Part shown: piece by piece, positions 2 to 63,640 of the stretch
How positions within the stretch are numbered: position 1 is the stretch's first letter
How the letters are laid out: every line of letters begins with the position of its first letter
Assembly: GCF_900101015.1 (NCBI RefSeq)
Contig: NZ_FNFZ01000002.1
Span: 151,221 to 215,220, forward strand
Direction of reading: 5' to 3'
DNA length: 64,000 bases
Source: Sarcina sp. DSM 11001
GTDB taxonomy: Bacteria > Bacillota > Clostridia > Lachnospirales > Lachnospiraceae
Notes under the pieces: model-generated
The model's input: only the letters and a program-made list of their open reading frames with translations
Databases searched by the model: none
What the model was told of the DNA's origin: nothing
Made by a program: the position numbers and the translations under genes

Positions 2-757
2 GAGTTTGCCCGCCGCCTGTCGCTGGAAGGATATCCGCTTATCCTCATCGCGCGAAGGCGTGACCGGCTTGAGGCTCTGCGCGCCGAACTGGGCACGGAG
101 TGCCTCCTGCTGCCGGCAGATCTGGCCAGACGGGAAGACCTGATCCGCCTCTGCGAGGATCTCGTCGGGAGAAGGATCGATATTTTTATCAACAATGCGG
201 GCTTTGGAGTCAGCGGCCCCTTCCTTGGGACTGATCTGATGAGGGAAGTCAATATGGTGGATGTCAACGTGGTCGCCCAGCATGTCCTCTTCAAGTATGT
301 CCTCCACAGGATGGAGGCGGAAGGCGGCGGCGCCATCCTCAATGTGGCTTCCTCCGCCGGGCTCTTTCCCGGAGGGCCCTTTATGTCGGGATACTACGCG
401 ACCAAGGCTTACATGACAAGCCTCACCCGGGGCGTCGCCGAGGAACTGCGGCAGTCGGGGTCTCCCGTCTATGTCGGCTGTCTCTGCCCCGGTCCCGTGA
501 ACACGGAATTCAACGCGGTGGCGGATGTCGTTTTTGCCCTGCCCGGTATTTCCGTGGAGGAGTGCGTGGATTCCGCTCTTCGCATGATGAAAAAAAGAAA
601 GACGGTCATCATTCCTGAAAAGGAGCTCAGGGCAGCTGTCATCGGACAGAGATTTCTGCCCGATGCCCTGACAGTGCGGATCACTGCTGCCCAGCAGAAA
701 AAGAAGATGCAGGAGCCGGAGCATAAGACCGTGAAGGAGACGGCCTGCCCATCCTGA
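2..757 (+). CDS. Short-chain dehydrogenase/reductase, 5' partial
   Basis: The reading frame is already open at base 2, so the N-terminus with the glycine-rich NAD(P)-binding loop lies outside the window. Visible are the SDR signatures: an NNAG motif (INNAGFG), the catalytic-type serine in VASSAG and the YxxxK pair in YYATKAY. The family are Rossmann-fold NAD(P)H oxidoreductases, and the DltE/YqjQ-like subgroup is the closest by feel. The substrate cannot be told. The C-terminus is a charged, lysine-rich tail whose DNA is imperfectly duplicated just past the stop codon. No operon link to the ATP synthase genes is evident. Confidence 0.9.
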   Translation, partial: EFARRLSLEGYPLILIARRRDRLEALRAELGTECLLLPADLARREDLIRLCEDLVGRRIDIFINNAGFGVSGPFLGTDLMREVNMVDVNVVAQHVLFKYVLHRMEAEGGGAILNVASSAGLFPGGPFMSGYYATKAYMTSLTRGVAEELRQSGSPVYVGCLCPGPVNTEFNAVADVVFALPGISVEECVDSALRMMKKRKTVIIPEKELRAAVIGQRFLPDALTVRITAAQQKKKMQEPEHKTVKETACPS

Positions 758-833
758 CAGAAGAAGATGCAGAAAAAAGGTGCAGGAAACGGAGCAAAAG
801 ACCGTGAAAGAGACGGGTTGCCCTTCCTGACAG
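701..833 (+). repeat. Imperfect tandem duplication over the SDR stop codon
   Basis: Bases 701-760 (last codons, stop at 755-757 and three more bases) recur at 761-833 with substitutions and a small internal insertion. Both copies begin AAGAAGATGCAG and end with CCTGACAG. The second copy is non-coding. It is the first of a series of stop-codon-spanning tandem repeats in this window. Confidence 0.8.
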
Positions 834-868
834 AAAAGTGTATAGTATAAAGACGTGTCGGCTGGGAT

Positions 869-890
869 AATGATTGAGACGGCATGTTAG
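869..890 (+). repeat. Solitary copy of the MITE terminal sequence
   Basis: AATGATTGAGACGGCATGTT followed by AG closely matches the right terminal inverted repeat of the element at 40242-40459. No matching left end is visible nearby, so this may be a decayed or solo end. It lies about 35 bp ahead of the first ATP-synthase-operon gene. Confidence 0.55.
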
Positions 891-924
891 TCTGAATCCG
901 AAACCTGGAGGAGGCGGCAGCTAT

Positions 925-1188
925 ATGAAATGGAATGAGATACTGGCGCAGCTGACTCTGCTGGGACAGCTCGGGCTGTCGCTTGCAATGCCGATCCTGA
1001 TGTGCCTCGGAGCCTGCTACCTGTTATGTACGCGTCTGAATGCTCCGCTGTGGATCTATCTTCCGGGTATGATCCTCGGGATAGGAGCTTCCTTTATGAC
1101 TGCTTACAAAGTCTATCTGGCAGTCACGCGGAAGGAAAAGAGAGATCCCCGGGATCCGGATGAACGCTCCTACAACAGACATATGTAA
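925..1188 (+). CDS. AtpZ/AtpI-family small membrane protein (ATP synthase operon)
   Basis: An 87-residue protein with two predicted membrane helices (about residues 10-34 and 40-62) and a basic, charged C-terminus. Size, topology and position at the head of an atp operon fit the AtpZ/AtpI-like family, whose members help assemble the c-ring or move Mg2+/Ca2+ for F-type ATP synthase. The ATG at 925 is chosen because GGAGGAGGCGG precedes it at 906-916; an in-frame start at 874 would put the ribosome site inside the gene and the MITE-like end in the coding region. The family call is from topology and context, not a decisive motif. Confidence 0.7.
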   Translation: MKWNEILAQLTLLGQLGLSLAMPILMCLGACYLLCTRLNAPLWIYLPGMILGIGASFMTAYKVYLAVTRKEKRDPRDPDERSYNRHM

Positions 1189-1245
1189 ATGACTGCGATG
1201 CGGAGCCGCACATAAATCCTTAGAATAAGAGAATACGAAACGAGA

Positions 1246-1854
1246 ATGATGAAACTACAAAAAGCTGTAAAGCAGGAGACAGTCTCCGTCGCTGTGGGCA
1301 CGGGGATTGGATGCATCGGCGTCATGGCTCTGTTCCTGATCCTGCATCTGATCTTTCCTGAATCCACTGTAAAATTTGATTACCGTGTGGTTCTGGGAGC
1401 TCTCTGCGGCGGGGCGGTCGCAGTTGCCAATTTCTTTCTCATGGCGTTGACAGTCCAGAGCGTCGTAAATGTGGAGAACAAGGATGATGCCCTGCGCATG
1501 ATGCGTGTGAGTTACCGCAACAGGATGCTGATGCGGGGGCTCTGGGTCATCATTGCGATCGTTGCGCCCTGTTTCAACTATGCGGCCGGCATCATACCGC
1601 TTTTTATTCCGGGGTTCGTGATCAAGATCCGGGGGATCCGGATGGGGATCACGCAGAAGAAGCCTGCGGCCGGAAATACTTCCGGGACGGGACATGCAGA
1701 CGCTTCCACAGAAACAGGCTCAAAAACAGAATCAGAGACAGATTCTCAGGCCCTGCCGGAAGAGGCAGAAGCTTCAGAAAAAACGGAAACTTCTGTGGAA
1801 ACTGATTCTCAGGCCCTGCCGGAAGAGGCAGACACGTCAGAGAAAACAGAATAG
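1246..1854 (+). CDS. atpI: ATP synthase subunit I-like membrane protein with repetitive acidic tail
   Basis: 202 residues. Residues 1-130 hold about four hydrophobic segments in the pattern of the ATP_synt_I family (PF03899-like), located right before atpB as is usual. The remaining 70 residues are hydrophilic, rich in Ser, Thr and Glu, and contain a 21-residue tandem repeat around the motif DSQALPEEA. Such a tail is not part of the family core and is likely disordered on the cytoplasmic side. Two ATG codons (1246, 1249) are possible starts and there is no strong ribosome-binding site. The role in c-ring assembly is inferred from context. Confidence 0.7.
   Translation: MMKLQKAVKQETVSVAVGTGIGCIGVMALFLILHLIFPESTVKFDYRVVLGALCGGAVAVANFFLMALTVQSVVNVENKDDALRMMRVSYRNRMLMRGLWVIIAIVAPCFNYAAGIIPLFIPGFVIKIRGIRMGITQKKPAAGNTSGTGHADASTETGSKTESETDSQALPEEAEASEKTETSVETDSQALPEEADTSEKTE
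1741..1853 (+). repeat. 63-bp tandem repeat coding the AtpI tail
   Basis: GATTCTCAGGCCCTGCCGGA starts at 1741 and again at 1804, a period of 63 bp (21 codons, in frame). The second copy is slightly shortened and runs to the stop codon. Confidence 0.85.
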
Positions 1855-1938
1855 TCGGAAACATCAACATCAGTCTGTTGCAGCACATACTATTCTTTAT
1901 AATGTGGGAAAACACGAAGGAGGAGGTGAGTTTATTTA

Positions 1939-2703: not shown

Positions 2704-2773
2704 TCCGGGAAAGACCGGGCGGCGGTTTCAGAAACAGTTTCTGAAGGGAGTCGGTCCGGCTTCAGATCGCAAA

Positions 2774-2870
2774 GCGGCAGGAAAACAGCAAACTGCAGAA
2801 AATCATAAGCGGCAGGAAAACAGTAAACTGCAGAGAAACAGTAAACTGCGCGAAAACAGTAAACTGCACG
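2774..2870 (+). repeat. Tandem repeat array in the atpB-atpE spacer
   Basis: Four degenerate copies built on GAAAACAGTAAACTGC, the last three spaced 16-18 nt, with the first two preceded by AGCGGCAG. It lies about 70 bp after atpB and 90 bp before atpE, inside the operon transcript. Confidence 0.85.
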
Positions 2871-2931
2871 ATTTTGTAAGGAAAACAATAAATATATTAT
2901 TGGATAATCTTAATATTTTAGAGGGATTTAG

Positions 2932-3240
<309 letters not shown>

Positions 3241-6056: not shown

Positions 6057-6070
6057 AATGGAGGAAAATA

Positions 6071-13740: not shown

Positions 13741-15840
<2,100 letters not shown>

Positions 15841-16010: not shown

Positions 16011-17198
16011 ATGGCAGAACAGAAAAGAGATTATTATGAGGTCCTGGGCGTGGAAAAGAGCGCGTCAGAGGACGAGATCAAAAAGGCGTACCGCAAGCTC
16101 GCAAAAAAGTATCATCCGGATATGAACCCGGGCGACAAGGAGGCGGAAGCCAAGTTCAAAGAGGCTTCAGAGGCCTATGCAGTCCTGAGCGACAGCGAGA
16201 AACGGGCCAAGTATGACCAGTTCGGCCATGCGGCATTTGACGGCAGCGGCGGCTTCGGCGCAGGCGGATTTGACTTTACCGGCGCGGATTTCTCAGATAT
16301 TTTCGGGGATCTTTTCGGCGGCATGTTCGGCGGCGGCCGCAGCAGGGGCGCTTCCAACGGCCCCATGAAGGGCGCGAATATCCGCACCAGCGTCAGGATC
16401 ACCTTCCTGGAAGCTGTTTTCGGCACAGAAAAAGACCTGACCATGAACCTCAAGGATCCCTGCCCCACATGTAACGGAACGGGCGCAAAGCCTGGGACAT
16501 CACCCCAGATGTGTCCCAAGTGCGGAGGCAAGGGACAGGTGGTCTTTACTCAGCAGTCCTTCTTCGGGACGGTCCGGAACGTACAGACCTGCCCGGACTG
16601 CGGAGGAAGCGGCAAGATCATCAAGGACAAGTGCACGGACTGCGGCGGTACCGGTTATATCACCAGCCGCAAGACCATCAATGTATCAATCCCTGCCGGA
16701 ATTGATAATGGTCAGAGTGTCCGCATCCGCGAAAAGGGCGAGCCCGGGATCAACGGCGGACCCCGCGGCGATCTTCTGGTGGAGGTCATCGTATCTCCTC
16801 ATGAGACCTTTGAGAGGGATGGGATCGATATCTTTTCCATGGTCAGGATCTCCTACCCCATCGCAGCCCTCGGCGGCAGCGTCATGATCGACACCGTCGA
16901 CGGCAGGATCGTCTACGACGTGAAAGCCGGCACACAGACAGGAACGCAGATCCGTTTCCGCAACAAGGGCGTGCCGAGCCTTCGAAACAAGGACATCCGG
17001 GGCAACCATTATGTGACCTTGGTGGTGGAAGTCCCCACGAAACTCAGCAAGGAAGCCAAGGAGGTCCTGCGCAAGTTTGACGAACTGACAGGAGACTCCC
17101 TCACCGCTGTGGAACGCGCGGGAAATAAGGACAATAAAGACGGCGAATCGGAAAAGAAAGACCATAAGGAAAAGAAAAAGCACTTTTGGGAAAAATAA
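16011..17198 (+). CDS. dnaJ: Molecular chaperone DnaJ (Hsp40)
   Basis: 395 residues. J domain at residues 5-70 with the HPD motif ([10 protein letters not shown]), Gly/Phe-rich region (75-120), four CxxCxGxG zinc motifs ([32 protein letters not shown]) and the C-terminal substrate domain. It stimulates DnaK ATPase and delivers clients. The ATG at 16011 matches the family start; a TTG at 15999 next to AGGACGGA is an alternative. The C-terminus is lysine-rich ([11 protein letters not shown]). Confidence 0.98.
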
Positions 17199-17199
17199 C

Positions 17200-17352
17200 T
17201 TCCGGGGAAAGGGCTTCCGGAAAAAGCAGTTTCCGGAAAAAGCAGTTTCCGGAAAAAGCAGCTTCCGGAAAAAGCAGCCTGCAGAAAAACAGGTTCCGGA
17301 AAAGCAGCTTCCGGAAGAAACAGGCTCCGGAAAAGATAAAATTTCCGGAGAA
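17200..17352 (+). repeat. Tandem repeat array downstream of dnaJ
   Basis: Begins two bases after the dnaJ stop. Units of about 17 nt built on TTCCGGAAAAAGCAG, clear for at least six copies and degrading toward 17350. Every unit contains the palindrome TTCCGGAA, so the transcript can fold in many ways. Confidence 0.9.
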
Positions 17353-21970: not shown

Positions 21971-21980
21971 TCTCCTGCGG

Positions 21981-22140
21981 GATTATAATATCGGAATATA
22001 ATTCCTGACTATAATTCCGGATCATAATATCGGAATATAATTCCTGATGATAATACCTGATTATAATTCCTGACTATAATTCCGGATTATTATTTTCGGA
22101 CTGTTATTTCCCGGATCATTATTTGTCCCGGGTCATTATT
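21981..22140 (-). repeat. AT-rich tandem repeats downstream of the HPr-like gene
   Basis: Units of 12-17 nt resembling AATTATAATCAGG/CCGG on the minus strand, about twelve degenerate copies, starting immediately after the stop codon of the minus-strand gene at 22142 and reaching the thiI terminator. Confidence 0.85.
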
Positions 22141-24033: not shown

Positions 24034-24057
24034 CGCCGCTTGACCAGCCCTGGCCCG

Positions 24058-24155
24058 TCCCGGAATGCTCCCGGCATGAAGGCCGGAATGCCCCCGGCAT
24101 GAAATCCCGGCATGCAGTCCCGGTATGCAGTCCCGGTATGCAGTCCGGGTATGCA
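24058..24155 (+). repeat. Tandem repeats downstream of mtaB
   Basis: Degenerate 13-16-nt units on CCCGGCATG / CAGTCCCGGTATG, about seven copies, beginning 25 bp after the mtaB stop codon. Confidence 0.85.
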
Positions 24156-27961: not shown

Positions 27962-28468
27962 ATGAAGAAAGACAACAGAGAAGCGGGAATCCTGGAGACG
28001 CTCATCGGAGTGCTGATGGATGCCCTGCCCATAGTCTGCGCCTTTTTTATCGTGACGTGGGCAGGCGCCGCCTATACAGAAGGATACGGACTGTTTGTCC
28101 AGAAGGGGATGGACAGATCCGGGTCCGCCCATACGGAGATCGTGGAAGTGACGGAGGAGGAAGCCTCTTCCGCCCTTGCTGTCGGACGTGTCCTGGAAAA
28201 ACAGGATCTGATCCGCAGCAGGTTTGCTTTTGCCATTAAATCAAAGCTGTCCGGATATGACGGCCTGATCCTCCCGGGACAATATGTCCTGTCCTCTGAC
28301 ATGACGGCAGAGGAGATTCTGCAGAAGATATCCACAAAGACCGCAAAAGCCGGAACTGAATCGGGAGGAGCGGCCGCAGGCGGGGAGGACGAGCAGGAAG
28401 AAGGCAGCCGGTCCCGGGAAAGCGACGACGCTGAGAAGGAGAATAAGGATGTGTGGGGACAGTATTGA
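27962..28468 (+). CDS. MltG-like (YceG N-terminal type) membrane protein
   Basis: 168 residues: a membrane helix at about 15-40 and a short domain with SKLSGYDGLILPGQYVLSSDMTAEEILQKIS, which matches the LysM-like part of MltG/YceG. The lytic transglycosylase catalytic domain is absent, and the C-terminus is Gly/Glu/Ser-rich. Position before trmR corresponds to yrrL in B. subtilis. GGAAGCGGAGGAGACCC precedes the start; its end overlaps the start of trmR by 20 bp. Confidence 0.75.
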   Translation: MKKDNREAGILETLIGVLMDALPIVCAFFIVTWAGAAYTEGYGLFVQKGMDRSGSAHTEIVEVTEEEASSALAVGRVLEKQDLIRSRFAFAIKSKLSGYDGLILPGQYVLSSDMTAEEILQKISTKTAKAGTESGGAAAGGEDEQEEGSRSRESDDAEKENKDVWGQY

Positions 28469-29387
28469 TTCCGGAGAACGGAGATCCTGTGCTGCCGACC
28501 CTCACCGGATGGACGTTTTTGTTGAAGCAATGGATTCCGGAGAACGGAGATCCTGCGCTGTCGACCCTCACCGGATGGATGTTTTTGTTGAAGCAATGAC
28601 ACCTCCGGGTCCGGCACATCTGCGCAGCCTGGAGAAGCAAGCCCTGGACGAGGGCGTACCTGTTATCCGCCCCCAGACGCAGAATCTCATCCGTTTTTTT
28701 CTCACGCTGAACAGGCCGGGGAGGATACTGGAGATCGGTACCGGTGTGGGCTTTTCTGCTCTTTTCATGCAGTACTATGCCCCCCTGGACTGCAGGATCA
28801 CTACGATAGAGATCGACCCCGTCCGCGCGGAAAAGGCGCGGAATAATTTCGTCCGGGATGATTACGCCCGTGACGCTTTCAACAGTACATCAGGGATCAT
28901 CCAGGAAAAAAGAAGACCGCTCGGACACAGCCTGGCAGAGTCCTTTATGGATACGGCCGGGCCGCAACCCGGTGCTCACGGGGGCGCCGGCACCATCGAA
29001 CTTCTCGAAGGCGATGCAGCGGACATACTTCCCCGGATCCATGAAGACGCTTCCTTTGACCTGATCTTTATGGACGCGGCCAAAGGCCAGTATATCCGGC
29101 TTCTGCCGGAAGTGCTGCGCCTGCTTGCGGAGGGAGGTCTGCTGATCACCGACAATATTCTGCAGGAGGGGGATGTCCTCTCCTCTCGTTTTGCTGTCAC
29201 GAGGAGAAACCGCACGATCCACCACCGCATGCGCGCCTATATCCGTGCTTTGATGGAGGCGCCGGAGCTGGAGACCCTGCTCGTGCCGTCGGGGGATGGA
29301 GCGGCGGTCTGTGTCAAAAGACAAAACGACCCTGCCGGAAGACGGCCGGAAAAGAATATCAGTGAAAAACCGGAATTGAAATCTTAA
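28449..29387 (+). CDS. trmR: tRNA 5-hydroxyuridine methyltransferase TrmR-like O-methyltransferase
   Basis: 312 residues, class I SAM methyltransferase of the caffeoyl-CoA O-methyltransferase type: motif I ILEIGTGVGFSALFM, acidic motif TIEIDPVRAEKA, and DLIFMDAAKGQY. In B. subtilis TrmR (yrrM) methylates ho5U34 to mo5U in tRNA, made by the neighbouring U32 proteins, as here. The N-terminus contains an in-frame duplication of 22 residues (GERRSCA...FVEAM twice), and there is a Gly/Pro-rich insert at about residues 140-180. AAGGAGAATAAGG precedes the ATG inside the preceding gene. Confidence 0.88.
   Translation: MCGDSIDSGERRSCAADPHRMDVFVEAMDSGERRSCAVDPHRMDVFVEAMTPPGPAHLRSLEKQALDEGVPVIRPQTQNLIRFFLTLNRPGRILEIGTGVGFSALFMQYYAPLDCRITTIEIDPVRAEKARNNFVRDDYARDAFNSTSGIIQEKRRPLGHSLAESFMDTAGPQPGAHGGAGTIELLEGDAADILPRIHEDASFDLIFMDAAKGQYIRLLPEVLRLLAEGGLLITDNILQEGDVLSSRFAVTRRNRTIHHRMRAYIRALMEAPELETLLVPSGDGAAVCVKRQNDPAGRRPEKNISEKPELKS
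28467..28598 (+). repeat. 66-bp tandem duplication in the 5' end of trmR
   Basis: Bases 28467-28532 and 28533-28598 differ at only a few positions. The period is a multiple of three, so 22 residues are duplicated in frame. Confidence 0.95.
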
Positions 29388-29497
29388 TATTCGAAACAGC
29401 TGGAAATTTAATATACAGTTGGAATTTTAATATACAGAAGAATTATAATATACAGAAGAATTATAATATACAGAAGAATTTTAATATTCAGAACAGA
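29376..29497 (+). repeat. Tandem repeats spanning the trmR stop codon
   Basis: Units of about 18-19 nt on AATTTTAATATACAGAAG, six degenerate copies. The first overlaps the last trmR codons and its TAA (29385-29387). The last copy lies a few bases before the next start codon. Confidence 0.9.
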
Positions 29498-29502: not shown

Positions 29503-30765
29503 ATGGAAAAAAGATGGAAGACAACCCGACCGAAGCCGGAGCTTCTGATCCCCGCAAAGGATCTGGAGGTCCTGCGGACGGCGGTCAATTTCGGAGCGGA
29601 CGCGGTCTATATCGGGGGTGAGGCCTTCAGCCTGCGGGCGAAGGCGCGCAATTTCAGCCCCGATGATATGCGCGAGGGGATCGCCTATGCCCATGAGAGG
29701 GGCGTGCGGGTTCATGTCGCCGCTAATATTTACGCACACAACCAGGATCTGGACGAGGCCAAGTCCTATTTTGAATTTCTGGAAGGGATAAGGCCGGACG
29801 CGGTCCTTATTGCTGACCCCGGCATGTTTATGCTTGCCAGGGAGCACTGCCCGGGGATCCCGATCCATATCTCGACACAGGCCAACAGTACCAATTACGG
29901 GACTTTCCGCTTCTGGCACAGCCTTGGCGCTTCCCGAGTGGTATGTGCCCGGGAGCTTTCGCTGCGGGAGATCGCCCAGATCAGGGAGAATACCCCCGGG
30001 GATCTGGAGATCGAAGCCTTTATCCACGGCGCGATGTGTATTTCCTATTCGGGAAGATGTCTTCTTTCCGCCTGGTTTACGGGTCGGGATGCCAACCGGG
30101 GCGCCTGTACCCATCCCTGCAGATGGAAATATGCGGTGGCGGAAGAGAGCAGGCCCGGGGAATACCTGCCGGTCGAAGAGAACGAAAGAGGTACCTATAT
30201 CTTTAATTCCCGCGACCTGTGTATGATCGATCATCTGCCTGAGCTTGCCCGGGCCGGGATCGACAGCCTCAAGATCGAGGGACGTATGAAGACTGCCCTC
30301 TATGTCGCGTCGATCACCCGCGCTTACCGGCGCGCTATTGACGATTACCTGGAGAGCGATGAAAAATATACCGCGGGAATGGACTGGTACCGCAGGGAGA
30401 TCCGCAAATGTACCTACCGCGATTTCACGACAGGATTTTATTTCGGCAGGCCGGATACGCAGTCCATGGTCTATACCGACAACACCTATTCCAGCGATGC
30501 CGTTTTTCTCGGAATCGTTGAAGAAGTCCGGGAAGAAGCCGGGGACGCTCCGGGTTCCGTGGTCATCCATCAGAAGAACAAGTTTTCCGTAGGGGATACC
30601 ATAGAGATCATGCGCCCGGATGGAAAAGACAGGCAGGCCCGTGTCCTCGGGATGCGGGGCGGGGACGGGGAGCCGGTGACGTGCGCTCCTCATCCGGGAG
30701 AGCGGATCCGGTTGTTTCTGGATGCTCAGGCCTGTGAAGGAGATCTGCTGCGCGCAGTCAGATAA
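29503..30765 (+). CDS. Peptidase U32 family protein (TrhP-like, tRNA uridine hydroxylation)
   Basis: 420 residues. The U32 signature EAFIHGAMCISYSGRCLLS is intact around residues 168-190, with further cysteines in RGACTHPCRW. U32 proteins TrhP1/TrhP2 (yrrN/yrrO) hydroxylate U34 of tRNA in B. subtilis, and E. coli RlhA hydroxylates 23S rRNA. A single U32 gene follows trmR here, where B. subtilis has two. The C-terminal part (330-420) is a beta-barrel-like extension. The function is inferred from motif plus neighbour. Confidence 0.92.
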   Translation: MEKRWKTTRPKPELLIPAKDLEVLRTAVNFGADAVYIGGEAFSLRAKARNFSPDDMREGIAYAHERGVRVHVAANIYAHNQDLDEAKSYFEFLEGIRPDAVLIADPGMFMLAREHCPGIPIHISTQANSTNYGTFRFWHSLGASRVVCARELSLREIAQIRENTPGDLEIEAFIHGAMCISYSGRCLLSAWFTGRDANRGACTHPCRWKYAVAEESRPGEYLPVEENERGTYIFNSRDLCMIDHLPELARAGIDSLKIEGRMKTALYVASITRAYRRAIDDYLESDEKYTAGMDWYRREIRKCTYRDFTTGFYFGRPDTQSMVYTDNTYSSDAVFLGIVEEVREEAGDAPGSVVIHQKNKFSVGDTIEIMRPDGKDRQARVLGMRGGDGEPVTCAPHPGERIRLFLDAQACEGDLLRAVR

Positions 30766-30854
30766 GGAACTGCCGTGAACAGTCAGACAGGGGACTGCTG
30801 CGAACAGTCGGATTAAAAACTGTTGCAAACAGTCCTATAAGAGGCTGTTGGGGA
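30755..30854 (+). repeat. Four 25-nt tandem repeats starting at the U32 gene stop codon
   Basis: Four units of exactly 25 nt (30755-30779, 30780-30804, 30805-30829, 30830-30854), each beginning CAGTC. The first holds the final codons and TAA (30763-30765). Units 3 and 4 carry further TAA triplets. Inside units AACTGTTGCAAACAGT-like dyads can fold. Confidence 0.93.
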
Positions 30855-41936: not shown

Positions 41937-42020
41937 GCAAAGAAACAGACAAAAAAGCGAGTAAACAAGAGAGTAAACAAGCAAGTAAAAAAGCAAGTAA
42001 AAAAGCAAGAAATAAAGTTA
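41928..42020 (+). repeat. Tandem repeats spanning the ctpA stop codon
   Basis: Units of about 11-12 nt on AAGCAAGTAAAA, at least six copies. The first, GCGGAGTAAGCAAAG, includes the ctpA TAA (41934-41936), and later units keep AGTAA. Confidence 0.88.
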
Positions 42021-49535: not shown

Positions 49536-49653
49536 AGTGATGAGAAATATCCTATAGCCGGCGGTCGGAACGGCAGACTGCCCTGCCGCACAGTGGACGG
49601 TTCCGTACGGTATATATTAACAGGAAGCGGGCGGAAATACAATTGAGGAATAT

Positions 49654-49833
49654 CTGCAATCAGCCTGTTTGCATTCATTCAGGCTGTTTGTAATCAGGCT
49701 GTCTGCAATCAGGCTGTCTGCATTCATTCAGGCTGTTTGTAATCAGGCTGTCTGCAATCAGGCTGTCTGCATTTAGCCTGTTAAATTCAGGTGCTTGCAT
49801 TCAAGTGTTTGCATTCAGGTGTTTGCATTCAGA
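49654..49833 (-). repeat. Tandem repeats spanning the stop codon of the XRE gene
   Basis: On the minus strand the XRE gene ends ...TTCTGAATGCAAACAC, and CTGAATGCAAACAC-like 14-nt units follow, then 15-16-nt units on GCAGACAGCCTGATT, in total about 180 bp. The first unit holds the TGA stop (49829-49831). Confidence 0.9.
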
Positions 49834-50068
49834 ACTGCGGGAAGGATTTGTGAACATTGCCGGCCCCTGAGATGTAATCCATACAACAGTCGTAATGCCT
49901 CGCAAGAAGGATGAGCCTTTCCAGGGGTATGCGGAGTCTTCCGGTTTCGTAATCGCTGTAGGTGCGCTGTGAGATTTTCAGGAGTCCGGCGACCTCTTTC
50001 TGGGAATATTTACTTTGCTTTCTGAGTATCCGGATCCGTTCATTCCATTTTCCTGTCCTATGCTGCAT
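49829..50068 (-). CDS. XRE-family helix-turn-helix protein
   Basis: 79 residues. Cro/CI HTH at about 8-65, with YSQKEVAGLLKISQRTYSDYETG as the helix-turn-helix and LERLILLARHYDCCMDYISG closing it. AAAGGAGCAGAT precedes the ATG. Divergent from the large sensor-like gene at 50315, with 246 bp between, so it might regulate that gene. Confidence 0.88.
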   Translation of the reverse strand: MQHRTGKWNERIRILRKQSKYSQKEVAGLLKISQRTYSDYETGRLRIPLERLILLARHYDCCMDYISGAGNVHKSFPQF

Positions 50069-50314: not shown

Positions 50315-53300
50315 ATGGAAACACCTATTGATTTCGGTAAGGAATTTTTACATACATTTTTTGATCAGCGTGACGCGGACGCCTGTCAGGGCATGCTTGC
50401 AGGGGATCTGGTCTGGATCACACCGGAGAATATGCACCATTTTCTCTCGGAGGGAGCTGTGCTCTCGTTTCTCAGAAAGAAGATCGAAGAAGATGGGGAA
50501 TCGAGATATGTAGATCTGGTCTCGATCAAGAGTTCTCCGAGCGCGGATAATATCATGACGGTGGCATACGAGATCAATCTTGTATCAAGGGAAGAGGATA
50601 AGCCACTTCATCTGCGGTGTTCCATGGCTATCTGCAGGCGGGGGAGACGTCTGGAGATCACGTTTTTACATTTTTCAAAAAAATCAGAGCGGGACGGCAG
50701 CGAGCAGCTTCGGGAATTTGTCATGAACCTGCCCTGCGGTGTGATGATCCTCGCGTGTCTGGACGGCCGCCGCGAAGAGGCCATTTTTTATAATGAGTAT
50801 TTCGCCCGTAAACTGCGCTACAGGGAGGATGAGTTTGCCCGGGCAGTCAGCCGGAATCCGTTTTTTATGACTTCGGAGGAGGACCGGGAGAGGATCCACA
50901 GCCAGATCGGGCAGGCGAGGGAAAAGGGAGGCAGTCTGGCTGTCAATCTCCGGGTATATCGCAAGGATGGGAACAGTTTTTATTACAGAATGACGGGATC
51001 TCCGGTTTTTCAGGCAGACGGAGGGACCGTGTTTTATTGTATTTTCCAGGAGACGACCGGGTTTCAACTGACGGCGGCCAGGCTTCAGGGCCGTCTCGAC
51101 TCGGTGACCGAGATCCTGCGCCAGGTCCCTGAAGGGATCTGTGTGATCGAGTATCCGCCGCAGGATGCTGATGAAAAAAATCCGTCCGTATCCGGGGAAA
51201 CAGACAGAGGACCAGACGGAGAAAAGAAGGAGCTTTCCGACGACAGTGATGTCAAAGTCTACCGGAAGGGAAAGAAAAAAGACGCGGCAAAAAGCAGGAC
51301 TTATGCATCCGGGGCGGCTGCGCCTGTCCTGGCGGAAACAGTCGGTCCGGTCAGTTTTGCGAAAGCATCGGATACAACATCGGATACAATAAACCTGAAT
51401 CCGTCAAAAGATTCGGATACGGTCAGTCTGAGTCCTCTGAACGGGACGAAGCAAGGGCAGGCGGAAGGTGATCCGGAACAGCTGCCGGGGAAAGAGCAGG
51501 GGAGTCCGGACAACGGGGCTTCCAGGAGCGGAAAAGAAAAGAAAAAGAGCAGCAGGGTCTTTTATCTGAGCAGGAACCTTCCCGCCATGTTCGGTGTCTC
51601 AAACAGCGCTTTTACCAGAAATATCCTCCAGGATCCGTTTTACGGGCTGGAGATGACCAGTATCACACGGGACAGGCTTCTGTATTCCCCGATTTTTCAG
51701 CCGGAAAAAGCGGGAGCGGGCAGGGCGGTTTCCTGCGGAATTTTCCGTATGAGAAGGCCGGACGGGAAGTCACTGCGGCTGGAGCTGGCAGCCAGAAAAA
51801 TAAAAAGTGCGGAGGGCGCCACGCGGCTGTTCCTGTTTTATTTTGACCGGGAAGAACAGCAGCAGGATACAGAGAACCGCATAGACCGCGCCATGAAGAT
51901 GGGCCGTGCCGGTCAGGACCAGCTTCGCGAAGAACTGCGTAAGGCCAGAGAGGCCTCGGCACGCAGGGAGAGCGAGCTTGCCGCTGCGGCAAAGGAAGCC
52001 GGGGAAAAATATCAACAGGAGATCGCCAGGATCGAAGGGCAGCTCGTGGAGGAAAAGAACCGGAGCGCGATCATGGCCCGGAGACTCGACAAGAACGGCG
52101 TGGAGAAAACCAGGCTGAAGGAAGACCTGAAAAAGGCCAGGACAGATGCCTCCATGCGGATCCGCGGTCTTCAGAGCGAAATGGAGCGCAGGGTAAAGGA
52201 GGCAGAGAAGAGCCTGGCTGCGGCACAGGAAGAAGCGGCCGCAAAAATAGAGGAAGCGCAGAGATATTCTTCCGCGGAAATGGAAAAATCAGAACAGAGG
52301 GCAAAGGACGCGGAAGCCGCGCGCCGGATCCTGGAGGAACAGCTGAAGGAGGCTCAGGAGAGGAACAGACTTCTCCAGGACCAGCTCCAGGAGGAAAAAA
52401 CAAGGCGCCTGTTGCTGGAGGAAAGATCCGGGAAAGAGGAAAGATCCGGGAAAGAGGAAACATTCGGGAAAGAGAAAGAATCCGGAAGAGAGGAAGGATC
52501 CGGGAAAGAGAGAGGATTCAGAAAAGAAGAAACTCAGGGAATTCCGCGGATGGCCGGTCATACGCCTGCAGACATACCTGCTGACGGGGACTGGATGACT
52601 GAGAACGATCCTCTCACAGTTTTTTCTACGATCGGGCTGGATACTGACAGTCCAGTCCGTTCTTCAGGCAGCTTTGATCAGGCTGTTCTGATCCCGGGGA
52701 GCATTCCGCGCGGAAGCGGCCGGGGAGCGGGTGCAGCAGCCGCTGTGTACGGCTCCGCCATGCTGGCTGCGCCGCGGCAGATTTTCCAGACACAGGAAGC
52801 GGCAAAAGGACAGGCTCAACAGAGCCTTACAGGAGACCTGGAGTTTTTCCTTCAGCAGCCGGCGGCATCGGAGCTTATGACTGCTGAGGAGAGAGATCTA
52901 TATACAGAAAAAAGAATACGTGTGAGGGAATCGGACAAGGCAAAGCACAGGCTTCGGAGACTTATGAACAGAGCCTCTTCCTATGTCAGGACTCCGCAGG
53001 AGGCAAAAGAGATCAGGGCCAGCCGTGAAGATACAAAATACGGTTATCAGATCCGCTGCGGCCGTGAGAACATCGGCCTGCTCATGGAGGATTTTCTGGA
53101 CGCCGCTTCTGAGTTTTCCCTTCTGCGGGAACAGGTATTTTCACCGGAGAGCTTTTTACAGAACATCATGATCTACGAAGGGATGGCCTGTGCGGAAAAG
53201 GGAATCTTCCTGAGACTGAACCTGGAAAGCCGGCTCCCGGATTCTGTGGCAGGTTTCCGGGGACTCTTCCAGCGTGCCCTGTGCGGCCTGGTGGAGAACT

Positions 53301-53596
53301 CGATCGCCCACACAGAGCGGGGCGGCAGGATCGCTGTCCTTGTCAGGGCGGACAGACCGTCCGAGGGACGGGTCAACCTGCATATTCGTGTCGAGGACAA
53401 CGGCGAGGGAATCCCTGCGGACAGAATGCAGACTATTTTTGAAGCGGAAAAAAGCCCGGAGAATGACAACGTGGTCCGCTCAGGACTCTTTGCGGCGCGG
53501 GAGGCGGCCGCTCTGATGGGCGGCAGTATTCACGCGCGCAGCCGGGAAGGGTCAACCCGTTTTCTGCTGACCGTTTCCCTGCGTGTTCATCAATAA
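50315..53596 (+). CDS. Large PAS / coiled-coil / HATPase sensor-like protein
   Basis: 1093 residues, no membrane helices or signal peptide seen. Residues 1-125 resemble an NTF2/SnoaL-like domain; 128-250 a PAS domain; 285-410 a low-complexity linker; 415-510 a second PAS-like part; 520-700 an Ala/Glu/Lys-rich coiled coil; 705-740 repeats of ERSGKE; 980-1093 a GHKL ATPase domain with N box LVENSIAH, G1 DNGEGIP and G2 SGLFAAREAAALMGG. A dimerisation histidine box is not evident before the ATPase domain, and no response regulator is adjacent. Probably a degenerate or unusual soluble sensor kinase; function unknown. Confidence 0.75.
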   Translation: METPIDFGKEFLHTFFDQRDADACQGMLAGDLVWITPENMHHFLSEGAVLSFLRKKIEEDGESRYVDLVSIKSSPSADNIMTVAYEINLVSREEDKPLHLRCSMAICRRGRRLEITFLHFSKKSERDGSEQLREFVMNLPCGVMILACLDGRREEAIFYNEYFARKLRYREDEFARAVSRNPFFMTSEEDRERIHSQIGQAREKGGSLAVNLRVYRKDGNSFYYRMTGSPVFQADGGTVFYCIFQETTGFQLTAARLQGRLDSVTEILRQVPEGICVIEYPPQDADEKNPSVSGETDRGPDGEKKELSDDSDVKVYRKGKKKDAAKSRTYASGAAAPVLAETVGPVSFAKASDTTSDTINLNPSKDSDTVSLSPLNGTKQGQAEGDPEQLPGKEQGSPDNGASRSGKEKKKSSRVFYLSRNLPAMFGVSNSAFTRNILQDPFYGLEMTSITRDRLLYSPIFQPEKAGAGRAVSCGIFRMRRPDGKSLRLELAARKIKSAEGATRLFLFYFDREEQQQDTENRIDRAMKMGRAGQDQLREELRKAREASARRESELAAAAKEAGEKYQQEIARIEGQLVEEKNRSAIMARRLDKNGVEKTRLKEDLKKARTDASMRIRGLQSEMERRVKEAEKSLAAAQEEAAAKIEEAQRYSSAEMEKSEQRAKDAEAARRILEEQLKEAQERNRLLQDQLQEEKTRRLLLEERSGKEERSGKEETFGKEKESGREEGSGKERGFRKEETQGIPRMAGHTPADIPADGDWMTENDPLTVFSTIGLDTDSPVRSSGSFDQAVLIPGSIPRGSGRGAGAAAAVYGSAMLAAPRQIFQTQEAAKGQAQQSLTGDLEFFLQQPAASELMTAEERDLYTEKRIRVRESDKAKHRLRRLMNRASSYVRTPQEAKEIRASREDTKYGYQIRCGRENIGLLMEDFLDAASEFSLLREQVFSPESFLQNIMIYEGMACAEKGIFLRLNLESRLPDSVAGFRGLFQRALCGLVENSIAHTERGGRIAVLVRADRPSEGRVNLHIRVEDNGEGIPADRMQTIFEAEKSPENDNVVRSGLFAAREAAALMGGSIHARSREGSTRFLLTVSLRVHQ
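52430..52530 (+). repeat. 18-nt in-frame repeats inside the sensor-like gene
   Basis: Five to six copies on GAAAGATCCGGGAAAGAG, translating to ERSGKE and variants. Period 18 keeps the frame. Confidence 0.9.
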
Positions 53597-53819: not shown

Positions 53820-54857
53820 ATGGATAACAGAAAAAAGAATGGAAAAAAGAAGACCCGCCGGGAAGAAGATAAAGCAGACCAGGGAGTGATCAGAAGTGTC
53901 GGGAATGGCCTGAAGAGCGCGATGGATCTGGCTGTTTTTACAGGATTGTGCGCGGGAGCAGGCGCCCTGGCCGGTGCGGCCGCACATTTTTATAAATATG
54001 CAATGACGCCCAAAAAACATGATCCACGTATCGACAAGGATCCGCTGCAAAAAGACTATGTCGCCGGCCGCAGATGGGTGAAGGAACATCCCCTCCGGGA
54101 GGATGTCTATATCCGCTCGGATGACGCGCTTCAGCTTCACGCGAACTTTATCCCCGCTCAGGACAGAAATGTCCAATGGTATGCAGTCTGTGTTCATGGC
54201 TACGCGGATACTTCGGTCAGCATGGGGCTCTACGCGAGAGTCTACAGTGAGCAGTACGGGATGAATGTCCTGCTGCCGGATCTGCGCGGGCATGGACTGA
54301 GCGACGGCAACTATGTCGGGATGGGGTACGATGACAGAAGGGACCTGCTCCGCTGGATCGACTGGATCCTGGAGAGAGACGCGGACGCAAGGATCATCCT
54401 GCACGGGATCTCCATGGGAGCTGCGACTATCCTGATGACCACTGGAGAGAAGATCCCCGCCCAGGTCGTGGCTGCCATTTCAGACGCGTCCTATACCTCG
54501 GCTATGGATATCTTTACCGCTGTTTACAAGAAGGAAAAAGATGCGGTCGTCCCGGCTCCGATCCTTCTGGAGGCCCTGCGGGGCGTCACCCTGATCCGTG
54601 CGGGCTATGACATCGCAAAGGCATCTCCTGTCGAAGCAGTTGCCCGATCCAGCACACCGACGCTGTTTATCCATGGACAGGCAGACAGGTTTGTACCTTC
54701 GGAGATGATGCCGGTACTGTTCAAAGCAGCGGCCTGTCCGAAAGCTTTTCTCTGGATCCCGGAAGCAACACATGTGATGTCCGTATGCGTGGATCCCGAG
54801 ACCTACTGGTCCAAAGTGGAAAGATTCCTGCACGCCCGCGGGATGCCGCTTTCCTGA
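53820..54857 (+). CDS. Alpha/beta hydrolase, membrane-anchored
   Basis: 345 residues. A basic N-terminus is followed by a membrane helix (about 36-58) and an alpha/beta hydrolase fold: oxyanion strand VCVHGYADTS, nucleophile Ser in HGISMGAA, acid in FIHGQADRFVPS and His in PEATHVMS. Lipase/esterase-like, of the YqkD-type group with an anchor; substrate unknown. ATGGAGCATTATT precedes the start. Confidence 0.9.
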   Translation: MDNRKKNGKKKTRREEDKADQGVIRSVGNGLKSAMDLAVFTGLCAGAGALAGAAAHFYKYAMTPKKHDPRIDKDPLQKDYVAGRRWVKEHPLREDVYIRSDDALQLHANFIPAQDRNVQWYAVCVHGYADTSVSMGLYARVYSEQYGMNVLLPDLRGHGLSDGNYVGMGYDDRRDLLRWIDWILERDADARIILHGISMGAATILMTTGEKIPAQVVAAISDASYTSAMDIFTAVYKKEKDAVVPAPILLEALRGVTLIRAGYDIAKASPVEAVARSSTPTLFIHGQADRFVPSEMMPVLFKAAACPKAFLWIPEATHVMSVCVDPETYWSKVERFLHARGMPLS

Positions 54858-54868
54858 AAGTAACCTGC

Positions 54869-55016
54869 AAAAATCATTTCTAAAATAGTGCTGCAAAAAT
54901 AAGGCTGCAAGAATAACATTGCAATAATAAGGCTGTGAAAATAATGCTGCAAGAATAACATTGCAAAAATAAGGCTGCGAAAATAACATTGCAAGAATAA
55001 CGCTGCAAAAAACACC
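54869..55016 (+). repeat. 14-nt tandem repeat array after the hydrolase gene
   Basis: About nine units on ATAACATTGCAAGA / ATAAGGCTGCAAAA, exact 14-nt spacing over most of the array, beginning about 12 bp after the stop codon and running up to the terminator. Confidence 0.93.
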
Positions 55017-55020
55017 TGTA

Positions 55021-55068
55021 AAAATCCCATTCCAACAAGGCGAAGCAGTGCCGGAATGGGATTTTTTG
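55021..55068. terminator. Bidirectional terminator
   Basis: AAAAATCCCATTCC (55021-55034) pairs with GGAATGGGATTTTTT (55054-55068); T-rich after it on the plus strand and A-rich before it, so it can serve both converging genes. Confidence 0.9.
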
Positions 55069-60496: not shown

Positions 60497-60538
60497 AAAA
60501 AAGACAGAAAAAACGAACAGGAGGTCATAAACGCAGGT

Positions 60539-61027: not shown

Positions 61028-61129
61028 ACAGCAATGCAGGAAAACGCCTGCCTTGTCTCTGCCGGAAAAGGAGACATATAAAAACCAGGCAATAGATGTT
61101 CCGTTTAATGCAGATTAGGAGGACTATTG

Positions 61130-62545
61130 ATGAAGTACGATGTGATCATAATCGGAGCCGGTCCCGGCGGTATTTTTTCCGCTTATGAGCTGATGAAAAA
61201 AAGCCCCGGCCTGAAGGTGGGAGTATTTGAAGCGGGGACGGAGCTGGAAAAGCGGCACTGTCCGATCGACGGAGAAAAAATAAAGACCTGTATACGCTGC
61301 AAGAGCTGCTCCATCATGTCAGGCTTCGGCGGGGCGGGTGCTTTCAGCGACGGCAAGTACAATATCACGAATGATTTCGGCGGCACGCTCCACGAATATA
61401 TCGGGAAGAAAAAAGCGATCGAGCTGATGCAGTATGTGGATAACATTAACCTGGAACACGGAGGAGAGGGCACAAAGCTTTATTCCACTGCGGGGACGGA
61501 ATTCAAAAAAAAGTGTATTCAGAACAAACTCCAGCTCCTGGATGCTTCTGTCCGTCACCTGGGAACGGATATCAATTATGTCGTCCTGGAAAACCTGTAC
61601 GCGGAAATGAAAGACCACATTGATTTTCATTTCAGTTCTCCGGTGGACCACATTGAGGTCCTCTCCGAAAAAAAGGCCGGCACTGCCCCCCGCTACAGGA
61701 TCTATTACTCCGGTGCCTCCACAAAAGCGGACACTGTCCGCACGGCCGAGGCCAGATACCTGATCATCTCCGTCGGCCGCATCGGCAGCAAGTGGATGGA
61801 AAAGACCTGCCGCGAACTCCAGATCCCGACCAAGTCCAACCGCGTGGATATCGGCGTCCGCGTCGAACTTCCGTCAGTGGTCTTTTCCCACCTGACGGAC
61901 GAACTGTATGAGAGCAAGATCGTATACCGGACCGAGAAATTCGAGGACAGCGTGCGCACCTTCTGCATGAACCCCAACGGAATCGTGGTCAATGAAAATA
62001 CCAACGGCATCGTCACGGTAAACGGCCACAGCTTTGAAGACGCGTCCAGGAAGACAGAAAACACCAACTTTGCCCTCCTGGTCTCCAAACATTTTTCCGA
62101 GCCCTTCAAGGACAGCAACGGCTATGGTGAGAGCATCGCCCGCCTCTCCAATATGCTGGGCGGAGGAGTCATTGTACAGCGCTTCGGTGACCTGGCCCGC
62201 GGACGCAGGAGCAACGTCTCCCGCATCGAGGAGGGCACTGTGCGCCCCACCCTCCAGGCAACTCCCGGCGACCTGAGCCTGGTCCTGCCCAAACGCATCC
62301 TCGACGGCATCATAGAGATGATCTATGCCCTCGACAAGATTGCTCCGGGAACAGCCAACAACGATACCCTGCTCTACGGCGTGGAAGTTAAATTCTACAA
62401 CATGGAAGTGCGCCTCGATAAAAACCTCGAGACCAACCACCCGGGCCTCTACGTCATCGGAGACGGAAGCGGAGTGACCCACTCCCTCTCCCACGCCTCT
62501 GCAAGCGGAGTCTACGTGGCAGACCACATTCTGGGGAGAACGTAA
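61130..62545 (+). CDS. FAD-dependent oxidoreductase
   Basis: 471 residues. N-terminal dinucleotide-binding motif IIIGAGPGGIFSAYEL, a CxxC pair in IRCKSCSIMSGFGGAGAFSDGK, and a C-terminal FAD-binding GLYVIGDGSGVTHSLSHA. This is the large HI0933/GidA-like uncharacterised FAD family of clostridia. AGGAGG precedes the ATG (61130). Follows the carbonic anhydrase gene by about 100 bp. Its 3' end is duplicated in an 82-bp tandem repeat. Confidence 0.92.
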   Translation: MKYDVIIIGAGPGGIFSAYELMKKSPGLKVGVFEAGTELEKRHCPIDGEKIKTCIRCKSCSIMSGFGGAGAFSDGKYNITNDFGGTLHEYIGKKKAIELMQYVDNINLEHGGEGTKLYSTAGTEFKKKCIQNKLQLLDASVRHLGTDINYVVLENLYAEMKDHIDFHFSSPVDHIEVLSEKKAGTAPRYRIYYSGASTKADTVRTAEARYLIISVGRIGSKWMEKTCRELQIPTKSNRVDIGVRVELPSVVFSHLTDELYESKIVYRTEKFEDSVRTFCMNPNGIVVNENTNGIVTVNGHSFEDASRKTENTNFALLVSKHFSEPFKDSNGYGESIARLSNMLGGGVIVQRFGDLARGRRSNVSRIEEGTVRPTLQATPGDLSLVLPKRILDGIIEMIYALDKIAPGTANNDTLLYGVEVKFYNMEVRLDKNLETNHPGLYVIGDGSGVTHSLSHASASGVYVADHILGRT

Positions 62546-62691
62546 GAAATAAGCAGACTGTGCTTGCAGAGGCGCTGCCTCCGCAAGCGGAGTCTACGTG
62601 GCAGACCACATTCTGGGGAGAACGTAAGAAATAAGCAGACTGTGCTTGCAGAGGCGCTGCCTCCGCAGGCGGAGTTTACGCAGCAGACCGG
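62501..62691 (+). repeat. 82-bp tandem repeats spanning the FAD-gene stop codon
   Basis: GCAAGCGGAGTCTACGTGGC begins at 62501 and again at 62583, and a degraded third copy begins at 62665, a period of exactly 82. The unit includes the last 15 codons and the TAA. Each copy also holds the dyad CTTGCAGAGGC/GCCTCCGCAAG. Copies one and two are nearly identical, so this is recent. Confidence 0.95.
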
Positions 62692-62724
62692 AAAACGCTT
62701 TCCCTGTCAATCACTGATTTCGTG

Positions 62725-62785
62725 ACAGCATATAAAGCAAACGACAATTTATGTCCTTTGCTTTATATGCTGTTTTGCTTTATAT
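62725..62785 (+). terminator. Terminator downstream of the FAD gene
   Basis: ACAGCATATAAAGCAAA (62725-62741) and TTTGCTTTATATGCTGT (62757-62773), perfect 17-bp stem, then a T-rich second copy of the right arm. Confidence 0.85.
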
Positions 62786-62829
62786 GCTGTTTGCGCTATA
62801 TGCAGGTGATTGTTTATTGTATTAATGCA

Positions 62830-62858
62830 TTGACACAATTTGCAATCCATGTTATTAT
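62830..62858 (+). promoter_or_regulatory. Promoter of the gntR-ABC operon
   Basis: TTGACA (62830-62835), 17-bp spacer, TATTAT (62853-62858). Confidence 0.9.
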
Positions 62859-62863
62859 CCTAT

Positions 62864-62883
62864 TGTATTAATTAAATAATACA
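62864..62883. promoter_or_regulatory. GntR (YtrA-type) operator
   Basis: TGTATTA (62864-62870), six bases, TAATACA (62877-62883), a perfect dyad over the expected transcription start. YtrA-family repressors bind such AT-rich dyads at their own promoter. A further half-site-like TGTATTA lies at 62817-62823. Confidence 0.8.
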
Positions 62884-62952
62884 ACATAGAATGTGTAAAA
62901 CATTACTTCCGTTCCTCTCGTAAGAGTTTGTAAGTCTCATGTCAAAAGAACA

Positions 62953-63038
62953 GACCGGAAGACCGGAAGACCGGAAGACCGGAAGACCGGAAGACCGGAA
63001 GACCGGAAGACCGGAAGACCGGAAGACCGGAAGACCGG
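62953..63038 (+). repeat. Octanucleotide microsatellite in the gntR leader
   Basis: Ten perfect copies of GACCGGAA plus six bases of an eleventh. It is inside the transcript, 73 bp before the gntR start. A frame from ATG 62939 runs through it to 63127, overlapping the gntR start, but it has no clear ribosome site. Confidence 0.97.
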
Positions 63039-63110
63039 GGATGCTTCTGAGGAGACAGAAAAGGAAGACCGAGGGCGGATCAGAGACGGGCGGTCCAAAT
63101 GGAGGAGAAG

Positions 63111-63557
63111 ATGAAATGGCAGTTTGAAAACGGGATTCCGATTTACCTGCAGATCCTGAGGAAAATGCGGACGGAGATTGCGAGCGGTGCTTATCCGCCG
63201 GGAGGTAAGCTTCCCCCGGTCAGGGAACTGGCGCTGGAGGCAGGTGTCAACCCGAATACGATGCAGCGTGCTTTTGCGGAGCTGGAGCGGGACGGCCTTG
63301 TCTTTTCACAGAGGACCAGCGGGCGTTTCGTCACGGAGGATGAAGAGGCTCTCCGCCAAATCAGGAGGAGCCTCAGCGAGGAAATCATTAATGAGCTGTG
63401 TACGCGTCTGACACACCTGGGTATGGGCAGAGAAGAAATTCGTGCTGCGGTGGATGCGTGGGCATCAGGATATTTCCTGTCCGCAGAGTCGGAAAAAGAG
63501 ACAAAGCCCGAAAGAGAGCTGAGTCCTGAAAATGAGATAAAGCCAAAAGAGAGCTGA
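63111..63557 (+). CDS. GntR-family (YtrA-type) regulator
   Basis: 148 residues. Winged HTH at 1-75 (IPIYLQILRKMRTEIASGAYPPGGKLPPVRELA...NPNTMQRAFAELERDGL), then a short helical dimerisation part and a Lys/Glu-rich tail. YtrA-type regulators sit ahead of ABC transporter genes and repress them, as here. GGAGGAGAAG precedes the ATG at 63111. The tail and stop codon are part of a degenerate repeat. Confidence 0.93.
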   Translation: MKWQFENGIPIYLQILRKMRTEIASGAYPPGGKLPPVRELALEAGVNPNTMQRAFAELERDGLVFSQRTSGRFVTEDEEALRQIRRSLSEEIINELCTRLTHLGMGREEIRAAVDAWASGYFLSAESEKETKPERELSPENEIKPKES

Positions 63558-63640
63558 TATCTGAAAGGCAGATAAAGCCTGAAAAAGAGACAAAGCCCGA
63601 AATGGAGCCCGAAAAGAAGACAGAAAAGGCTCCGGAGACC
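63488..63640 (+). repeat. Degenerate repeats spanning the gntR stop codon
   Basis: Units of about 35 nt on AAAGAGAGCTGA...GAGATAAAGCC, at least three. Copy two holds the gntR TGA (63555-63557); the array continues toward the ABC gene. Confidence 0.75.

What the first reader, a model, noticed from the sequence alone, without database searches (positions are those of the whole stretch)
701..63640. Locus-specific tandem repeats that include the upstream gene's stop codon
About twenty spacers or gene ends carry short tandem arrays, each with its own unit (8-82 nt). In nine, the first unit contains the stop codon of the gene itself: SDR (755), dnaK (15790), trmR (29385), U32 (30763), ctpA (41934), XRE (49829, minus), sensor-like (53594), FAD (62543), gntR (63555). 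Further arrays begin within about 25 bp of a stop (dnaJ, HPr-like, mtaB, hydrolase). Units differ in sequence, so this is not one transposed family but a shared process that amplifies gene 3' ends, for example slippage or template switching near stop codons. Copies often retain stop triplets, which could act as back-up stops. I know of no named element of this kind.
Basis: partly seen in the sequence, partly recalled or inferred. Interest (0 to 1): 0.85.

Follow-up and report, generated by a model that had tools for sequence, protein, structure and literature searches.

The report
Repeat-rich bacterial genome, not stop-linked
This bacterial chromosome is full of short, locally born tandem repeats, roughly ten times more than in the related stretches sampled; they run over gene stop codons only as often as chance predicts, and what really stands out is how rarely they overlap gene starts.

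Summary
The arrays are real: 35 merged TRF arrays in the window, none in five Markov shuffles. Six of the nine named stop codons lie inside a TRF array, as does dnaJ's; trmR and ctpA arrays begin about 15 nt after the stop; 53594 has no TRF array.

In 819 kb of this genome, 36 of 198 arrays touching non-coding DNA include a stop (34 expected from random placement) and only 5 a start (35 expected). The asymmetry is depletion at starts, not attraction to stops. In-frame second stops are no commoner than elsewhere.

What is unusual is the genome-wide load: 0.41 arrays/kb, against a mean of 0.04 in 74 public loci, mostly Lachnospiraceae. Nearly every unit is unique; 139 of 142 wholly coding arrays have units divisible by three; arrays are A-rich on the gene strand and encode disorder-type residues; orthologous gene ends share no unit. 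This resembles the published repeats of archaeal Borg elements, here imperfect and chromosomal. Most likely: pervasive local duplication filtered by selection; a stop-containing duplication leaves the protein unchanged.

The parts
694..835 (+). 73-nt unit x1.9 over the SDR stop (755-757)
2772..2868 (+). 35/18-nt array in the spacer after gene 1939-2703; the G008 orthologue is followed by arrays of other units
13741..13865 (+). A/G-rich arrays in the spacer before dnaK
15787..15838 (+). 14-nt GTATAAAAGACCAG x3.8 over the dnaK stop (15790-15792); sister G010 has an array of another unit at the same stop, the nine other genomes read have none there
17174..17334 (+). 32-nt (16-nt sub-unit) array over the dnaJ stop (17196-17198); G008 and G010 lack a stop-spanning array there and align to the same end
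21980..22094 (+). 13/39-nt array of palindrome-like units in a convergent spacer; no array in G008, G009, G010
24057..24155 (+). 13-nt array after gene 22579-24033; G009 and G010 carry arrays of other units there, G008 none
28467..28598 (+). 66-nt unit x2.0 beginning within the stop codon of gene 27962-28468; no array in the ten relatives compared
29403..29493 (+). 18-nt GAATTTTAATATACAGAA x5.0, starting 15 nt after the trmR-like stop; G010 has a 39-nt x4.9 array without similarity in the same spacer
30755..30841 (+). 25-nt x3.5 over the U32 stop (30763-30765); G010 has 13-nt GACCGCGAAATAA x11.2 made from its own U32 end; G008, G009, G011, G018 none
41951..42017 (+). 12-nt x5.6, starting 14 nt after the ctpA (peptidase S41) stop
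49653..49832 (-). 14-49-nt overlapping arrays running into the stop of the minus-strand HTH_3 gene 49829-50068
52418..52532 (+). 18/36-nt coding array in the PAS/HATPase protein 50393-53596
54857..55025 (+). 14/42-nt array starting at the last base of the stop of gene 53820-54857
62495..62689 (+). 82-nt unit x2.4 over the FAD-protein stop (62543-62545)
62952..63038 (+). perfect 8-nt AGACCGGA x10.9 upstream of the gntR-type gene
63492..63602 (+). 35-nt x2.8 over the gntR stop (63555-63557)

Best explanation
The genome carries a pervasive load of short, locally generated tandem duplications (minisatellites). New arrays arise anywhere, probably by replication slippage or template switching, on sequence that is adenine-rich on the gene strand (mechanism inferred), and are then filtered by selection (seen as patterns; that selection causes them is inferred). 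Inside genes almost only units divisible by three survive; around ribosome-binding sites and starts arrays are mostly removed; in spacers they are free. A duplicated unit that contains the stop codon puts its extra copy behind the stop and leaves the protein unchanged, so the frame filter is lifted at the stop and arrays run across it at the ordinary non-coding rate. No stop-directed element is needed.
For: Stop overlap equals random placement: 36 against 34.2 in 819 kb, starts 5 against 35.3; likewise with local shifts and stricter gene sets and in G010, 12/0 against 16.3/16.4. Coverage: 0.5-2.8% of the coding positions examined, 5.1% in the last 30 coding nt, 11-16% within 200 nt after stops, 1.5% in the 15 nt before starts. 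Frame: 139 of 142 wholly coding, 64 of 151 non-coding, 13 of 47 mixed and 7 of 36 stop-spanning arrays have units divisible by three. Conserved stops: DnaK ends YREV, once YREI, in all 11 genomes read; G000 and G010 carry different arrays at that end; dnaK, dnaJ and U32 ends align without a tail to G008, which has no array at those stops. Turnover: 15 of 15 array comparisons at ten orthologous gene ends show no similarity. A on the gene strand 36.5% in non-coding arrays against 29.8% in the other co-oriented spacer bases, 35.4% against 26.0% in coding DNA.
Against: Why this lineage has so many arrays is not explained: MutS1, MutL, RecJ, XseA and SbcD are all found in G000. The 156 kb of later own stretches alone show weaker start depletion (3 against 5.4, P=0.18). 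Two genes, dnaK and U32, carry stop-spanning arrays in both G000 and G010 (Fisher P=0.053, 87 pairs), a hint of recurrence, though arrays up to 150 nt past the stop show none (P=0.73). Non-coding units divisible by three (64 of 151, 42%) exceed one third, so some may lie in genes that my caller missed. Arrays have more strongly folding members (33.6% against 16.1% with z below -2; Mann-Whitney P=0.056), which could mean some function. Within-species copy-number change could not be tested.
Confidence: 0.8

Rival explanations
1. A process directed at stop codons or gene 3' ends (for example template switching at terminators) amplifies the last bases of genes.
For: Stop-to-start ratio 36 to 5; dnaK and U32 carry differently built stop-spanning arrays in two species; 28 of 36 stop-spanning arrays hold at most one unit of coding sequence, though 21.2 are expected merely because an ORF ends at its first in-frame stop; arrays cover 16.5% of convergent spacers against 8.3% of co-oriented ones.
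Against: Stop overlap is not above random or local-shift placement; of 78 wholly non-coding arrays in co-oriented spacers 42 are nearer to the stop and 36 to the start; 142 of 340 arrays are wholly coding.
Confidence: 0.06
2. The arrays are selected 3'-end elements: back-up stops, terminators, RNA-stability or RNA-binding sites.
For: More strongly folding members than matched non-coding DNA (33.6% against 16.1% with z below -2); A-rich on the gene strand.
Against: No unit shared in 15 of 15 orthologous comparisons; no excess of in-frame second stops; 142 of 340 arrays are wholly coding.
Confidence: 0.08
3. Assembly artefact of a draft genome.
For: Draft genome of 76 contigs; repeats are prone to misassembly.
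Against: Copies are diverged (median 89% match) and non-coding and mixed arrays short (median 53.5 nt); coding arrays keep the frame (139 of 142); another genome of the genus shows a similar density (G010).
Confidence: 0.02
4. Remnants of one mobile or dispersed repeat family (STAR/MIRU-like).
For: None beyond the tandem form; weak matches of one array at two other places in the genome (75 and 81%).
Against: 269 of 275 units unique, largest cluster 2.
Confidence: 0.02

Closest known systems
Tandem repeats of archaeal Borg elements (Schoelmerich et al. 2023, PMC9879509; abstract, passages and section 2.1.3 read)
   Same: Pervasive, virtually all units unique, arise independently and evolve fast, 43-65% in ORFs with units divisible by three while most intergenic units are not, A-enriched, disorder-promoting residues enriched; [quoted passage not shown]
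   Different: Borg repeats are perfect copies on linear extrachromosomal archaeal elements; here copies are imperfect (1 of 161 regions of >=50 nt and >=3 copies is perfect) and lie in a bacterial chromosome with dnaK, dnaJ and a tRNA.
VNTR loci of Yersinia pestis (PMC3689786; passages read)
   Same: Locus-specific units; 16 of 88 VNTRs overlap an ORF end, ten of these the stop; the authors also reason that stop-overlapping variation has less effect on coding; 24 within ORFs with units divisible by three.
   Different: Six of those 16 overlap starts; 280 tandem repeats in CO92 by their criteria; polymorphism shown there, untested here.
Short tandem repeat survey across the tree of life (PMC12699852; passages and section 9 read)
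   Same: Trinucleotide-unit enrichment in coding DNA explained by frame selection; enrichment in intergenic DNA for most phyla.
   Different: Units of 1-9 bp; nearly all arrays here have units of 10 nt or more.
Mycobacterial MIRUs (recalled; searched, none of its three papers read)
   Same: Tandem units at gene junctions that can include stop codons.
   Different: MIRUs are one sequence family; here almost no two loci share a unit.

Membership tests
   36 observed, 34.2 expected; local shift 31 against 32.9
   39% of 31 against 39% of 370 within 10 codons
Bacterial minisatellite / VNTR | Head-to-tail copies with locus-specific unit | tested here: met
   340 arrays in 819 kb; 269 of 275 units unique
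Bacterial minisatellite / VNTR | Copy number varies between strains of one species | not testable with these tools
   one genome per species held
Borg-type tandem repeats | Coding units divisible by three, non-coding ones mostly not | tested here: met
   139 of 142 coding, 64 of 151 non-coding; Borgs: all coding, 14-38% intergenic
Borg-type tandem repeats | Adenine enrichment, coding and non-coding | tested here: met
   gene strand, 35.4 against 26.0% coding; 36.5 against 29.8% in co-oriented spacers; no significance test run
Borg-type tandem repeats | Disorder-promoting residues enriched | tested here: met
   AGQSPEKR 63.2% in coding arrays against 47.6% elsewhere, by composition only
Borg-type tandem repeats | Perfect copies | tested here: not met
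   1 of 161 regions of >=50 nt and >=3 copies
Borg-type tandem repeats | Carried on a linear extrachromosomal archaeal element | tested here: not met
   220-kb contig with dnaK, dnaJ, tRNA-Gln and synteny to other genomes of the genus
MIRU / STAR-like dispersed family | One unit family shared by many loci | tested here: not met
   largest unit cluster is 2 of 275

The most novel reading that the evidence does not exclude
One branch of a Lachnospiraceae genus has acquired an unusually active tandem-repeat-generating process, the chromosomal bacterial counterpart of that seen in archaeal Borgs (A-biased, locus-unique, turning over between species), that is lengthening spacers and inserting disordered linkers into proteins; a specific replication or repair change would be responsible.
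Probability: 0.35. Interest if true: 0.72.

Novelty: new member of a known kind. Interest (0 to 1): 0.42.

Why it matters
It corrects a tempting reading: arrays over stop codons need no stop-directed element, because a duplication that contains the stop is silent at the protein level. It also points to a genus in which species with a median of about 80% protein identity differ several-fold in tandem-repeat load in the stretches sampled, which makes the cause of repeat proliferation in a cellular chromosome testable by comparison, and offers a bacterial counterpart to the Borg repeats.

Tried and rejected
Loss of a repeat-suppressing gene: MutS1, RecJ (28), XseA (29), SbcD (50) and MutL (51) are all found over their family cut-offs in G000; rejected for these five only. 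Recurrent hot spots: arrays up to 150 nt past orthologous stops do not coincide more than chance between G000 and G010 (both in 7 of 87 pairs, P=0.73) or G008 (3 of 85, P=0.88); stop-spanning coincidence is 2 of 87, P=0.053, both already known from the window. Stop-containing first unit as proof of seeding: 28 of 36 with at most one coding unit is not far above the 21.2 expected from ORFs ending at the first stop. Strain-level comparison: the nearest named record, L044 (RUG375), is another species, at most about 86% in aligned DNA (G008) in the six loci compared. Repeat load follows genome size only loosely: G020 (3.8 Mb) has 0 arrays in 43 kb. Literature: the listings showed no paper on a tandem-repeat-rich Lachnospiraceae; four of them were capped, and the open-licence library misses most subscription journals.

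Rows dropped before counts: 5 of 40 own stretches read all N; loci under 8 kb (74 of 80 used) and under 18 kb (50 of 79 used); genomes under 25 kb in the correlations (14 of 22 used). The 74 loci are named records around the U32 gene, mostly titled Lachnospiraceae, and include at least one of this genus (L044). Genes were called by my own script, not a standard caller, and with this genome's model in the relatives too; it missed the short XRE gene, so that array is not counted in the placement tests as stop-spanning. In one search the array densities and the frame lengths of MutS1, MutL and XseA were typed for a chosen set of genomes with long frames (16, 11 and 10).
Full report
WHAT WAS CHECKED. 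TRF was run on the window. At score >=50, with overlapping rows merged, there are 35 arrays in 64 kb, 27 of them touching non-coding DNA; five Markov resamplings of the window gave 0. Five of the nine named stops lie in arrays of called genes (SDR, dnaK, U32, FAD, gntR) and a sixth is that of the minus-strand HTH gene 49829-50068. dnaJ is a further case. trmR and ctpA arrays begin 15 and 14 nt after the stop. The sensor-like gene has no TRF array at its stop.

THE STOP-CODON CLAIM. Whole genomes were not available as files, so stretches were taken. With a gene caller trained on this genome, 35 usable held-out stretches (598,865 bp) gave 240 arrays, 139 touching non-coding DNA; 25 include a stop (expected 22.2, P=0.30) and 2 a start (expected 23.1, none of 1000 simulations as low). 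Stricter gene sets and local shifts agree. With 156 kb more, the totals are 36 stops (34.2 expected) and 5 starts (35.3 expected) among 198 arrays; the new stretches alone gave 5 and 3 against 5.4 and 5.4 among 32, a weaker start depletion (P=0.18). G010 gave 12 and 0 against 16.3 and 16.4 among 75; the other genomes of the genus pooled gave 10 and 3 against 11.5 and 11.4 among 52. The coverage profile shows why stops look special: arrays fill 11-16% of the first 200 nt after stops, but only 1.5% of the 15 nt and 4.1% of the next 15 nt before starts.

HOW ARRAYS CROSS STOPS. Among 340 arrays in own stretches, 142 are wholly coding and 139 of these have units divisible by three; of 151 non-coding arrays 64, of 47 mixed 13 and of 36 stop-spanning arrays 7. 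The frame filter thus ends at the stop. At dnaK, 11 genomes of the genus end in the same residues (YREV, once YREI); G000 and G010 carry different arrays, and the G010 unit is visibly its last DnaK codons plus the stop, repeated downstream. At U32 the G010 unit likewise repeats the last codons and stop. dnaK, dnaJ and U32 align to their ends without a tail in G008, which has no array at those stops. Over all own stretches, genes with a stop-spanning array end within two residues of their orthologue in 5 of 5 G008 pairs and 5 of 6 G010 pairs (two of the latter have arrays in both); pairs without such arrays do so in 57 of 78 and 60 of 77. So the arrays do not shift protein ends.

WHAT IS UNUSUAL. 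The own genome has 0.41 arrays/kb (281 in 683 kb); 74 named loci around the U32 gene, mostly Lachnospiraceae, have a mean of 0.042 and a median of 0. In the matched 21-kb region the window has 10 arrays (0.47/kb), and the highest of 50 loci of at least 18 kb is 0.19. An E. coli K-12 stretch of 50 kb has 1. Within the genus, G010 (0.39), G009 (0.28), G014 (0.27, only 18 kb) and G008 (0.24) are high, and the 17 others lie between 0 and 0.16 on 4-43 kb each; G020 has 0 in 43 kb. Density goes with mean spacer length (Spearman 0.66, P=0.011, 14 genomes) and less with genome size (0.56, P=0.036). Units do not recur between loci. In 15 of 15 array comparisons at ten orthologous gene ends (seven in G010, three in G008) no similarity was found; the coding zinc-ribbon-like repeat is an exception to fast turnover, with the same 87-nt period in the same gene of G008.

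MECHANISM. Shown as patterns: locality, turnover, frame filter, start depletion, A enrichment on the gene strand, disorder-type residues in coding arrays. Inferred: that slippage or template switching makes the duplications, and that selection rather than mutation explains the start depletion. Not explained: why this lineage. Five candidate suppressor genes are present. MutL frames are longer in array-rich genomes (Spearman 0.81, P=0.003, 11 genomes; MutS1 0.49, P=0.053, 16; XseA 0.51, P=0.14, 10), which may be a result of the load rather than its cause.

COMPARISON WITH THE KNOWN. The nearest description is that of Borg tandem repeats (PMC9879509; abstract, passages and one section read), with the same unit uniqueness, frame rule, A bias and disorder, but perfect copies on archaeal extrachromosomal elements. 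The stop/start argument is already in print for Yersinia pestis VNTRs: ten stop and six start overlaps among 16 of 88 loci (PMC3689786, passages read). Hence the kind is known. A bacterial chromosome lineage with this load did not show in the listings of my eight completed searches (named in Tried and rejected), which cover only an open-licence library. The nearest named relative is uncultured Lachnospiraceae RUG375, 83% identical in U32 protein; the genus itself was not named.

MENDED ON RE-CHECK.

Noticed in passing
window 62952-63038: Perfect 8-nt AGACCGGA x10.9 array upstream of the GntR-type gene (called start 63111); a perfect octamer run close to a regulator's start could change expression by copy number.
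   Followed up: no
window 43413-43640: 87-nt coding repeat encoding zinc-ribbon-like cysteine units at the C-terminus of gene 42354-43667; same period in the same gene of G008, so probably a conserved protein repeat rather than a new array.
   Followed up: partly
G000:C26:56223-61271 and relatives: MutS1 and MutL open frames tend to be longer in array-rich genomes (MutL 773-915 aa in G000, G008, G009, G010, G014; 672-761 in eight others of the genus with long frames).
   Followed up: partly
own non-coding arrays: 33.6% of 137 non-coding arrays fold with z below -2 against 16.1% of 137 matched non-coding stretches; overall difference P=0.056.
   Followed up: partly
own stretches: Convergent spacers carry twice the array coverage of co-oriented ones (16.5% against 8.3%; divergent 6.2%).
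   Followed up: no
G009, G011, G018 U32 orthologues: U32 matches split near residue 350 (in G018 also near 215), pointing to in-frame insertions, probably further coding expansions.
   Followed up: no
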